Source of the DNA: Streptomyces sp. R44 | Lineage (GTDB): Bacteria; Actinomycetota; Actinomycetes; Streptomycetales; Streptomycetaceae | Assembly (NCBI RefSeq): GCF_041053105.1 | Contig: NZ_CP163444.1 | Location: forward strand, 2,852,001 to 2,916,000 | Direction: 5' to 3' | Length of the DNA stretch: 64,000 nucleotides | Part shown: positions 7,988 through 10,095 of the stretch, piece after piece | Numbering within the stretch: position 1 is the stretch's first letter | Layout: the number at the start of each line of letters is the position of its first letter | The notes under the pieces: model-generated | Told to the model about the DNA's origin: nothing | Seen by the model: only the letters and a program-made list of their open reading frames with translations | Database searches by the model: none | Translations under genes and position numbers: made by a program

Positions 7988-9691
7988 ATGGTCGCGAGGT
8001 ACGTCGTCTCGCCGCGCGGGGGCCGCCGGGCCCACCGCGACATCGCGTCGGCGCTCCGCGCGGCGGCCGCACGGGGCCGGGCGGCCCTGATCGAGATCGC
8101 GCCCGGGCGGTACGAGGAGGCGCTCACCGTCCGGGGCGAGGTGCGGCTGGTCGCGGCCGAGGGCCCGGGCTCCGTCCTGGTCGGCCGGACCCGGGGCGCG
8201 GCCCTGGACGCGTTCGGAACGGTCCAGGTCCACGGGCTCGTCCTGGTCGGCCGCGAGGCGGACGTCGTCGGCTGCCACACCGGGACGCTGACGCTGGAGC
8301 ACACGGAGATCCGGGCCCACGGCGGCGTCGCGCTGCACGCCCGGCCGGGCACCTCCGTCACCCTGCGGGACAGTGTGGTCGCGCACGGCCGGACGCTCTT
8401 CTCCGGCGGCGCGGGGCTCGTCGAGCGGTGCCGGTTCACCGATGCCGCGGACAACGCCGTCGCCGTCATCGACGGGGCCCGCGTCTCGGTCCGGGGCAGC
8501 CGGATCGAGGGCAGCCGGATCCACGGCGTGCGGGTCAGCGACGCACAGGCCGAGGTCCTCGGCTGCGAGCTGACCGGCACCGGAAACGCGGCGCTCATGG
8601 CGGACGCCCGGGCTCACCTCACCGTCGCGGACTGCGCGATCACCGCCGTGCACGCGGAGGGGATCATGTTCACCGAGCAGTCCCGGGGCTCCGTCGACAC
8701 CACGCGCGTCACGGACGCCCAGCACGGGATCGCCGCCGCGAACGGGGCGGACCCCCTGGTGCGCGGCTGCGTCCTCACCGACTGCCGGGACACCGGCATC
8801 AACGTCCAGAGCGGGGCCAGGGGCCGCTTCGAGGACTGCGAGGTCCTGAACGCGAGGAACGTCTCGGTGTTCTCGACCAAGGGCGGCGCGCCGGAGGTGC
8901 ACGGCTGTCGCGTCGCGGGAGGGAACGTCGGCATCGCCGTCACCGAGGGGGCGAGGGGACACTTCACGCGCGTCCGGATCCAGGACCTGGCGAACTCCGC
9001 GCTGCGGGTCTGGAACGAGTCCGGAGCCGTGTTCGAGGGCGTCCGGGTGGACCGTTGCACGCTGGGCCTGGACACCAAGGGTGACGGCGGCACGACGGCC
9101 GACCTCTCCGACGTGGTGTTGCGTGACTTCGAGACCGCGGTGACCGCGCTCGGCGAGTCGAGGGTCACGCTCAAGGGCGTGACGGCGGAGCGCGGGGCGG
9201 TGGGCTTCTTCGCGGGCGAGGAGGCACGGGTGCTCGTGCAGGACAGCACCGTAACCGCCGTGAGCATCGGCGGGGCCGTTGCGGCCGGCAAGGGGAGGCT
9301 CTCCGCGAGGAACCTCACCGTGAACGGCTCCGAGGGAACCGGCCTGGCCGGGAGCGAGTCCGGCTACCTGGACGTGGCGAACAGTGAGTTCACCGACTGC
9401 GCGAGCGCGGGCGTCGCCTTCGCCGACCAGAGCTCCGGCCGCCTGGTGGACTGCTCCGTGAACGGGACGGGCGGAGCCGCCGTCCTGCACAACAGCCGCG
9501 TCGAGTTCGTCTCGCTGCGCACAACACTGCCGGTCGTCCGCAGGACCATCCGCACGGTCGACCAGCCCCCGACGGTCGTCAACCAGATCGGTCCGGTGTT
9601 CCACAGGGACGTCCACGGCGCCCAGTTCGCCTGGAACAACGACCACGTCACCCAGAACCAGCAAACCGAAGGAGACGATTCCTCCCGATGA
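7988..9691 (+). CDS. Right-handed parallel beta-helix protein with C-terminal Gln/Asn-rich motif
   Basis: This 567-residue protein is built almost entirely of repeating G-x-x/V-x-V-x-x-C-x-I coils typical of pectate-lyase-like right-handed beta-helices. The coils run from about residue 60 to 510. No signal peptide or membrane segment is visible, so it should be cytoplasmic. After a short linker, residues 535-559 carry GPVF...V...QFAWNN..VTQNQQ. That motif recurs near the start of the next gene's product (17 of 25 positions identical). The stop overlaps the next start (ATGA, 9688-9691), implying coupled synthesis. Polysaccharide-cleaving residues are not evident. A scaffold, sensor or ligand-binding role is more likely than an enzyme, but the function is unknown. 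Confidence 0.85.
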   Translation: MVARYVVSPRGGRRAHRDIASALRAAAARGRAALIEIAPGRYEEALTVRGEVRLVAAEGPGSVLVGRTRGAALDAFGTVQVHGLVLVGREADVVGCHTGTLTLEHTEIRAHGGVALHARPGTSVTLRDSVVAHGRTLFSGGAGLVERCRFTDAADNAVAVIDGARVSVRGSRIEGSRIHGVRVSDAQAEVLGCELTGTGNAALMADARAHLTVADCAITAVHAEGIMFTEQSRGSVDTTRVTDAQHGIAAANGADPLVRGCVLTDCRDTGINVQSGARGRFEDCEVLNARNVSVFSTKGGAPEVHGCRVAGGNVGIAVTEGARGHFTRVRIQDLANSALRVWNESGAVFEGVRVDRCTLGLDTKGDGGTTADLSDVVLRDFETAVTALGESRVTLKGVTAERGAVGFFAGEEARVLVQDSTVTAVSIGGAVAAGKGRLSARNLTVNGSEGTGLAGSESGYLDVANSEFTDCASAGVAFADQSSGRLVDCSVNGTGGAAVLHNSRVEFVSLRTTLPVVRRTIRTVDQPPTVVNQIGPVFHRDVHGAQFAWNNDHVTQNQQTEGDDSSR

Positions 9692-10095
9692 GCGACCAGC
9701 AGAACACCCCGCGCAGCGACGGACCGGTCTTCAACCATGGCGTCTCGCACTCCCAGTTCGCCTGGAACAACGAGACCGTCACGCAGAACCAGCAGAGCAA
9801 CAGCACGGTCGCACCGGGGTACGAGACGCTCGCCGAGCGGGTGAACGAACTCCTCCGGGAGCTCCCCCGGGCCGGCCTCGCCGAGCCGGACCGCCAAGGC
9901 ACCCAGGAGGCGGCCGAGGAGGTCCTGGCGGAGATCACCGGGCCCGAGCCCGTCGAGCCGGGCCGACTGCGCCGCGCGCTCACCACCCTGCGGGGCGCCC
10001 TCGCGCCGGTCGCGACGGGGGTCGCGGCCGGGACGGCGGCGGGGGCGCAGGAGTGGGCCGTGGCGGCGATCGGCGGGCTGACGGGGATCGGGTAG
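9688..10095 (+). CDS. Small protein sharing the QFAWNN..VTQNQ motif, hydrophobic C-terminus
   Basis: This 135-residue protein has no family I can name. Residues 12-36 repeat the Gln/Asn-rich motif found at the C-terminus of the upstream beta-helix protein. Residues about 45-105 look like two amphipathic helices (ETLAERVNELLREL; TQEAAEEVLAEI). The last 40 residues are Ala/Gly-rich and hydrophobic with a single Trp (GVAAGTAAG, AVAAIGGLTGIG) and might insert into or associate with membrane. The start is fixed by the ATGA overlap with the upstream gene and an upstream GGAG. The two-gene arrangement suggests that the products meet through the common motif, as receptor and effector do in amyloid-motif signalling pairs. 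That is a hypothesis. Confidence 0.75.
   Translation: MSDQQNTPRSDGPVFNHGVSHSQFAWNNETVTQNQQSNSTVAPGYETLAERVNELLRELPRAGLAEPDRQGTQEAAEEVLAEITGPEPVEPGRLRRALTTLRGALAPVATGVAAGTAAGAQEWAVAAIGGLTGIG

What the first reader, a model, noticed from the sequence alone, without database searches (positions are those of the whole stretch)
7988..10095. Two-gene beta-helix / small-protein system linked by a shared Gln/Asn-rich motif
A cytoplasmic 567-residue beta-helix protein ends, and its translationally coupled 135-residue partner begins, with the same 25-residue motif (17 identical: GPVF...V...QFAWNN..VTQNQQ; residues 535-559 and 12-36). Shared motifs at the ends of adjacent proteins are the mark of bacterial amyloid signalling pairs (BASS/RHIM-like), where a receptor templates an effector. 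The partner's Ala/Gly-rich C-terminus could attack membranes. A sensor-effector, possibly defence or cell-death, system is conceivable. The motif duplication and ATGA coupling are seen; the mechanism is inferred.
Basis: partly seen in the sequence, partly recalled or inferred. Interest (0 to 1): 0.72.

Follow-up and report, generated by a model that had tools for sequence, protein, structure and literature searches.

The report
Two-gene pair sharing co-evolving terminal motif
Two overlapping Streptomyces-type genes make proteins that end and begin with the same short motif, and the two copies change together in evolution; the same layout recurs with unrelated proteins and different motifs, which suggests a signalling plug like those built on amyloid in immune pathways, but without the usual receptor.

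Summary
A 567-aa cytosolic beta-helix protein ends with, and its 4-nt-overlapping 135-aa partner begins with, the same 25-residue motif (17/25 identical; local score 94, against a maximum of 51 in 278 other adjacent pairs of this genome). A profile built from partner motifs alone finds the motif in 120 of 120 listed beta-helix orthologues. All 49 loci read (45 distinct) keep the pair, 44 with a start codon at the 4-nt overlap. The two copies co-vary beyond the rest of the proteins (partial r 0.48, p 0.0005); the adjoining linker does not, and codons show no overall gene conversion.

The layout recurs. DUF6232 membrane proteins end with, and the next gene begins with, a shared but different motif in 60 of 72 loci. 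Two of nine such partners scanned carry EAD1, an adaptor of bacterial conflict systems. The window's genome holds at least three such pairs, each motif resembling only its own partner's.

Most likely: sensor-to-adaptor wiring by homotypic, probably beta-arch/amyloid-like, motif assembly. It is NLR-independent and works like BASS, but fails BASS's definition (no NLR; motif positions swapped). Amyloid, immunity and cell death are untested; membrane attack by this partner is not supported.

The parts
7988..9691 (+). Gene 1: 567-aa right-handed beta-helix protein (putative sensor/scaffold)
   Evidence: Pfam Beta_helix 3e-35 and NosD 8.8e-16; AlphaFold2 mean pLDDT 91.6
7988..9547 (+). Beta-helix body, residues 1-520
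   Evidence: pLDDT 87-99 in blocks of ten residues up to 520
9548..9688 (+). C-terminal tail, residues 521-567, predicted disordered
   Evidence: pLDDT under 50 over 522-534, 540-546 and 548-567
9590..9664 (+). Motif copy 1, residues 535-559 of the beta-helix protein
   Evidence: found in 120 of 120 listed orthologues
9688..9691 (+). ATGA overlap of stop and start codons (translational coupling inferred)
   Evidence: a start codon at the same place in 44 of 49 loci, 40 of 45 distinct
9688..10095 (+). Gene 2: 135-aa partner (putative adaptor/effector)
   Evidence: 120 relatives listed; weak DUF5955 match below cut-off
9721..9795 (+). Motif copy 2, residues 12-36 of the partner
   Evidence: 120 of 120 listed relatives
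9823..10089 (+). Predicted four-helix domain, residues 46-134
   Evidence: AlphaFold2 helices 46-62, 66-83, 91-110, 118-134, block pLDDT 63-85

Best explanation
The two genes form a sensor-adaptor module. The cytosolic beta-helix protein presents the motif on a flexible C-terminal tail; the small protein presents the matching motif on a flexible N-terminal tail, followed by a four-helix domain. When the beta-helix protein is triggered (ligand unknown), its motif templates homotypic assembly of the partner's motif, probably as a beta-arch/amyloid-like stack, which clusters the four-helix domains and passes the signal to further partners or makes them active. It is one instance of a broader class in which other upstream proteins (DUF6232 membrane proteins) are wired by private, co-evolving motifs to a small downstream helical or EAD1 protein. 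Shown by sequence: conserved pairing, overlap, co-variation, specificity by similarity, recurrence with other proteins. Inferred: direct binding, beta-arch/amyloid state, direction of signalling, and a role in immunity or cell death.
For: Motif in 120/120 beta-helix and 120/120 partner relatives listed, using a profile of partner motifs only. Pair kept at 49/49 loci (45 distinct), 34 of them fetched by the beta-helix alone, and the beta-helix and the paired motif occur in the same 8 of 121 genus genomes. Several distinct genomic contexts. Motif-motif partial Mantel r 0.48, p 0.0005; linker control r 0.005, p 0.45; holds after removing outliers or close relatives. Codon identity within pairs no higher than across pairs, 0.740 against 0.746. 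Both motif regions predicted disordered next to folded domains. DUF6232 replication: 60/72 loci share a motif with the next gene, partial r 0.60. Own-genome matrix: own 94/76/73, cross 16-23. EAD1 in 2 of 9 DUF6232-type partners scanned, E 5.4e-12 and 1.3e-15.
Against: No experiment shows amyloid or even binding. The window motif does not resemble the one BASS3 peptide compared. The within-pair excess in the beta-helix set is modest (identity 0.579 own against 0.542 cross), and relatedness is only partly controlled. No EAD, NLR, TIR or protease family was found in this pair. Neighbouring genes were not scanned for defence families; by eye none looked like one. The helical domain has no informative fold match. 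Motif-helix proteins also occur without a matched neighbour, and 12 of 72 DUF6232 loci lack a clear match.
Confidence: 0.55

Rival explanations
1. The motif is an ordinary stoichiometric docking element (for example strand pairing, or capping of the open end of the beta-helix by the partner's motif) that holds a constitutive complex; there is no polymerisation and no immune role.
For: Explains pairing, overlap and co-variation equally well. The beta-helix has an end next to the motif tail.
Against: The same motif in both partners favours homotypic stacking over lock-and-key docking; the anatomy recurs with DUF6232, which is no beta-helix, and with EAD1 partners.
Confidence: 0.27
2. The shared terminus is a common address tag that brings both proteins to a third structure (compartment or scaffold); the partners do not contact each other through it.
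For: Terminal position and a disordered context would suit a tag.
Against: Motifs differ between the three pairs known in this genome and resemble only their own partner's; the window's motif profile has no other hit in this genome.
Confidence: 0.08
3. Toxin-antitoxin-like pair: the small protein is a membrane-active toxin held by the beta-helix protein through the motif.
For: Small overlapping partner with an Ala/Gly-rich end; weak resemblance of its helical part to the C-terminal part of PADLOC candidate PDC-M14B; 34 of 60 DUF6232 partners have a 19-residue window above 1.6.
Against: Weak hydrophobicity of this partner and its relatives; a large beta-helix is an unusual antitoxin; EAD1 in the same position in two related pairs points to an adaptor.
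Confidence: 0.06
4. The repeat is a by-product of a DNA duplication or gene conversion across the gene boundary, without function.
For: Both copies lie about 130 nt apart; at L057 a run of identical codons could be a local conversion.
Against: Found in all listed relatives; no excess of codon identity within pairs; protein-level co-variation with a clean linker control.
Confidence: 0.03

Closest known systems
BASS: NLR-associated bacterial amyloid signalling sequences (BASS1-10, Bell/NLR pairs; PMC7889193, PMC8086366, passages read)
   Same: Short (about 20-40 aa) motif shared by the products of adjacent or overlapping genes, linking a large protein to a small helical one, mainly in filamentous bacteria.
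   Different: No NLR and no identified Bell domain (no Bell profile was run). The motif is at the C-terminus of the upstream large protein and the N-terminus of the downstream small one; in BASS it is at the NLR N-terminus and the effector C-terminus. The window motif does not resemble the single BASS3 peptide compared. Four of 63 DUF6232 pairs carry, in both partners, a Q-hydrophobic-G-x-x-N core like that peptide's.
Effector-associated domains and membrane-associated two-gene conflict systems (EADs, EACC1; PMC7159879, passages read)
   Same: Adjacent genes joined by homotypic modules; EAD1 fills the partner slot in L147 and L148; a membrane component precedes a variable partner.
   Different: The linker here is a short, predicted disordered motif, not a folded EAD. 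DUF6232 has two hydrophobic segments by hydropathy, EACC1 one TM helix as described; DUF6232 is not named in that paper.
DUF5955 (PF19380) and PADLOC PDC-M14B, resembling the partner's helical part
   Same: Weak profile similarity to the helical region (21.9 bits; 17.8 bits).
   Different: Below the Pfam cut-off; only about a third of PDC-M14B is covered. What either does is not known to me.

Membership tests
BASS (NLR-associated amyloid signalling pair) | Short motif shared by products of adjacent or overlapping genes | tested here: met
BASS (NLR-associated amyloid signalling pair) | One partner is an NLR/STAND NTPase | tested here: not met
   Pfam finds only Beta_helix and NosD in the large protein and no NTPase in the small one
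BASS (NLR-associated amyloid signalling pair) | Motif at the receptor N-terminus and the effector C-terminus | tested here: not met
   Order reversed: large protein 535-559 of 567, small protein 12-36 of 135
BASS (NLR-associated amyloid signalling pair) | Effector-side Bell, TIR or CHAT domain | tested here: inconclusive
   No TIR or CHAT listed for the partner; no Bell profile at hand, four-helix model only
BASS (NLR-associated amyloid signalling pair) | Motif matches a BASS1-10 profile | not tested
   Profiles not held; one BASS3 peptide scored 23 and 17
BASS (NLR-associated amyloid signalling pair) | Motif forms amyloid and templates the partner | not testable with these tools
   needs peptides and fibril assays
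DUF5955 (PF19380) | Score over the gathering cut-off (27.1 bits) | tested here: not met
   21.9 bits, E 2.4e-4; 22.3 bits in the genome search
EAD1 (PF19955) | EAD1 domain in the window's partner | tested here: not met
   Not listed at E <= 1 for the window's partner; present in partners at L147 and L148
PADLOC PDC-M14B | Full-length profile match | tested here: not met
   Only profile positions 162-254 of 267, 17.8 bits, E 4.6e-4
Matched-terminal-motif pairs (class described here) | Upstream C-terminus and downstream N-terminus share a motif well above background, at or near an overlap | tested here: met
   window pair 94 against a maximum of 51; DUF6232 60 of 72 loci

The most novel reading that the evidence does not exclude
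Multicellular actinobacteria carry an NLR-independent family of two-gene signalling modules in which interchangeable sensors (cytosolic beta-helix, DUF6232 membrane protein and possibly more) are wired to small helical or EAD1 adaptors by private, co-evolving beta-arch 'barcodes'; several insulated amyloid-type channels run side by side in one cell.
Probability: 0.45. Interest if true: 0.9.

Novelty: new variant of a known kind. Interest (0 to 1): 0.75.

Why it matters
A 2021 review (PMC7889193, passages read) asks outright whether signalling amyloids exist in fungi and bacteria in pathways that do not depend on NLRs, and says the searches used so far are biased to NLR/executor architectures. 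These pairs are a concrete, testable yes-candidate with dozens of natural motif variants, at least three in this one genome, so that specificity and re-wiring can be tested directly. They also suggest a possible role for two families of unknown function, DUF6232 and DUF5955-like proteins, neither named in any held paper.

Tried and rejected
Homologues in phages: none at E <= 0.01 (tblastn); viral contigs: none confirmed for partner or beta-helix, so no phage-borne decoy was found. Plasmids: 7 records hold a match to the partner, none covering 80% of it; in the three regions opened (of 7) the match lies inside one annotated protein each, two hypothetical and one DUF1508 (annotation only).

Shared motif for the unpaired motif-helix proteins: in the 11 such loci given to besides L124, no neighbour scored above 38 except at L065 and L068 (45 and 48), and those neighbours look like motif-helix proteins themselves. 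In one search (11 relatives of the L124 partner) L134 had no matched upstream gene and my script took a wrong ORF for L131.

My wish to sort DUF6232 motifs into clean classes failed: single linkage put 59 of 63 in one cluster and 4 alone, so the variants named in the report were picked by eye from a continuum. In that set cross-pair scores within the cluster are high (mean 51) against own 76.5; between clusters the mean is 23 but the maximum 59. Only the four singletons and the own-genome matrix show sharp specificity. The motif segments in that Mantel test were cut from each pair's own alignment, a mild circularity. The twelve DUF6232 loci below score 55 are L229, L212, L228, L189 (weak match), L207, L144 (C-terminal motif but no matching downstream ORF found) and L142, L145, L149, L150, L203, L214 (no match; some frames look odd and were not examined). 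My first regular-expression script for pair extraction worked for three loci only and was replaced; a first script to read minus-strand motif loci printed nothing. For L105 the motif window was set by hand after the script misplaced it.

Literature: no held paper has DUF6232, DUF5955 or PF19380 or PDC-M14; none has amyloid signaling + beta-helix + actinobacteria. Subscription papers, including the original BASS paper (J Mol Biol 2020), were not read.

Full report
What is there. Gene 1 (7988-9691) encodes 567 residues; gene 2 (9688-10095) encodes 135; they overlap by ATGA. Pfam sees a right-handed beta-helix in gene 1 (3e-35) and only a sub-threshold DUF5955 match in gene 2. AlphaFold2 with family alignments gives a confident beta-helix over residues 1-520 and a disordered tail over 522-567 that holds the motif; gene 2 has a disordered N-terminus 1-38 that holds the motif, then four helices 46-134 at moderate confidence (mean pLDDT 66.8 overall).

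Is the shared motif real? The two copies (535-559 and 12-36) are identical at 17 of 25 positions. The C-terminus/N-terminus local score is 94; 278 other adjacent pairs from 400 kb of the same genome, called with my own gene caller, have mean 24, SD 6, maximum 51. A motif profile finds only these two places in the whole genome at E <= 10.

Conservation and pairing. A profile made from 24 partner motifs, with the beta-helix copy left out, finds the motif at the C-terminal end of all 120 listed beta-helix orthologues (120 of the 194 found were listed) and in the N-terminal part of all 120 listed partners (120 of 200 found). Among 121 genomes of the genus, the motif occurs in 13: in 8 as the adjacent pair and in 5 as a single copy; the beta-helix family occurs in the same 8. 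Among 147 genomes of the order, 14 have the motif, 11 of them with the pair and 3 with a single copy only; three of the 11 also have a further single copy. Of 49 loci read in detail, 34 were fetched by the beta-helix alone and 14 by the motif, plus the window. All 49 have the partner directly downstream, and 44 have a start codon at the 4-nt overlap; four loci repeat the same genomes, leaving 45 distinct, 40 of them with the overlap. In 15 loci with 15.6-20 kb of surroundings, the pair sits in three recurrent neighbourhoods (5, 6 and 2 loci) and two single ones, so it has moved or been reshuffled as a unit, in a minority of Streptomyces.

Co-variation. Across the 45 distinct loci, distances between beta-helix motifs and partner motifs correlate after regressing out distances of the beta-helix body and of the helical domain: partial Mantel r 0.48, p 0.0005. 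The 26 residues before the beta-helix motif do not (r 0.005, p 0.45). The signal stays without L057 and L105 (r 0.38), without six divergent loci (r 0.31, p 0.001) and in 28 loci with body distance over 0.2 (r 0.45). Own motifs are slightly but significantly more alike than cross pairs (0.579 against 0.542, simple permutation p 0.0002, not corrected for relatedness). Telling cases: L057 (VHNSQIAWGNE in both) and L105 (IAVGNE in both, where most others have AWNN or AWGN). At shared residues, codon identity within pairs equals that across pairs (0.740, 0.746; p 0.72), which argues against overall gene conversion; L057 has a run of identical codons and may be a local exception. Relatedness is only partly controlled by these tests.

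The same anatomy with other proteins. In the window's own genome, two further pairs were found while checking helical-domain relatives: a DUF6232 (PF19744) protein, with two hydrophobic segments by hydropathy, ending ...NYYFGDAVNIYGGSGNTGVSK and overlapped by 4 nt by a 112-aa protein starting ...HHYYGDAVNINGGQGHTGI; and another DUF6232 protein ending ...YNIGSMRDFYNASGPGSVGRMGSDRSR with a partner starting ...FHITNMRDFYQASGEGAVGRIE at a 17-nt overlap. I then read every DUF6232 locus that three searches reported at E <= 1e-5: 72 loci, of which 60 share a motif with the next gene at score >= 55 (shuffled maxima 24-52 over all loci), 46 of the 60 at a 4-nt overlap and 7 at a 1-nt overlap. Motif sequences vary widely between loci but match within pairs: for example GDHIQQYGSGSIGKAEHTGSG, GDVFAGDKFTGRGYNVNKSGRG, VGDRVMQIGDGNIGKV, YNGPVFHQNGAQNTGI. 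Partial Mantel for 63 loci (score >= 40) is r 0.60, p 0.0005 (the segments were cut from each pair's own alignment, a mild circularity). In this genome the three C-terminal motifs score 94, 76 and 73 against their own partners and 16-23 against the others, so the three systems look insulated at sequence level.

Link to conflict systems. In two DUF6232 pairs of another actinobacterial family the downstream partner, after its motif, carries EAD1 (E 5.4e-12 and 1.3e-15; 2 of the 9 DUF6232-type partners I scanned with Pfam), an adaptor described as recruiting effectors in conflict systems of multicellular bacteria (PMC7159879, passages). The helical part of the window's partner is possibly a distant relative of that in the DUF6232 partners (HHalign probability 90, 46 columns, shallow query alignment). 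Its weak resemblance to the PADLOC candidate PDC-M14B, and that of a related unpaired protein to AbiTi (E 0.0019), is only a lead; six proteins of the DUF6232 systems had no PADLOC hit at 0.1. Four of 63 DUF6232 pairs have a Q-hydrophobic-G-x-x-N core in both partners (L147, L202, L219, L222), as in the Frankia BASS3 peptide shown to aggregate in PMC8086366 (passages). Compared with that peptide as a whole, few pairs exceed the maximum of 100 shuffles, and then slightly (among the 14 best listed: L147 36 against 31, L202 32 against 28, L228 32 against 30, L186 27 against 26); L222 and L219 do not, and the window's motifs score only 23 and 17 (no shuffles run). So the resemblance is suggestive only.

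How it most likely works. Both motifs sit on predicted disordered tails beside folded domains, are the same rather than complementary, co-evolve, and in this genome resemble only their own partner's. The simplest reading is homotypic recognition: the upstream protein (beta-helix or membrane DUF6232) senses something and its tail nucleates stacking of the partner's motif, clustering the helical or EAD1 domain to pass the signal on. The beta-arch/amyloid form is inferred from analogy with BASS, not shown. A plain stoichiometric dock is the main rival. That the product of gene 2 attacks membranes is not supported (weak hydrophobicity in the window; 4 of 120 relatives above 1.6), although 34 of 60 DUF6232 partners do have a 19-residue window above 1.6.

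Placement. It works like BASS but fails two defining features, NLR partner and motif order. It is therefore a new variant of the amyloid-signalling kind at most, and the amyloid part needs the bench. No held paper mentions DUF6232 or DUF5955; [quoted passage not shown] Papers: PMC12261475 (first of six parts, and passages), PMC8086366 (passages), PMC7889193 (passages), PMC7159879 (passages), PMC8195603 (passages) and PMC3710099 (passages); PMC12881547 searched without a passage found. The original BASS paper was not read. RHIM and EAD consensus patterns used as leads were recalled before being tested.

Noticed in passing
G000:C1:1220941-1222200 (L002, L003): An 845-aa open frame in the same genome joins a related beta-helix to what looks like a CbxX/SpoVK-type AAA ATPase (by eye); this may be why some beta-helix orthologues are named 'stage V sporulation protein K' in databases.
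   Followed up: no
L124 4992-5950 (-) and L135 1495-2440 (-), own genome: Two DUF6232 pairs with matched terminal motifs unlike each other and unlike the window's.
   Followed up: yes
L059 8701-11082 (-), L060 8701-10881 (-): ORFs of 793 and 726 aa end with the motif plus the helical domain, without a matched neighbour; L059 also hits AbiTi weakly.
   Followed up: partly
L061, L063, L064, L122: Motif plus helical domain (cut short in L063) behind a conserved N-terminal stretch of the kind NKQGIRRMMREIQREMDKHPV; L122 is from another actinobacterial family; no matched neighbour found.
   Followed up: partly
L065-L068, L062: L065-L068: short proteins with a GPQFxG...SQxAIGN motif variant plus a helical domain; at L065 and L068 the upstream ORF looks like another motif-helix protein, and L062 resembles the latter.
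   Followed up: partly
L144, L207: DUF6232 genes that keep the C-terminal motif but have no matching downstream ORF in the DNA read; possibly decayed pairs.
   Followed up: no
L172 4725-5351 (Nocardia plasmid pPE-7): A plasmid protein annotated as DUF1508 contains a match to the partner over query residues 22-88.
   Followed up: no
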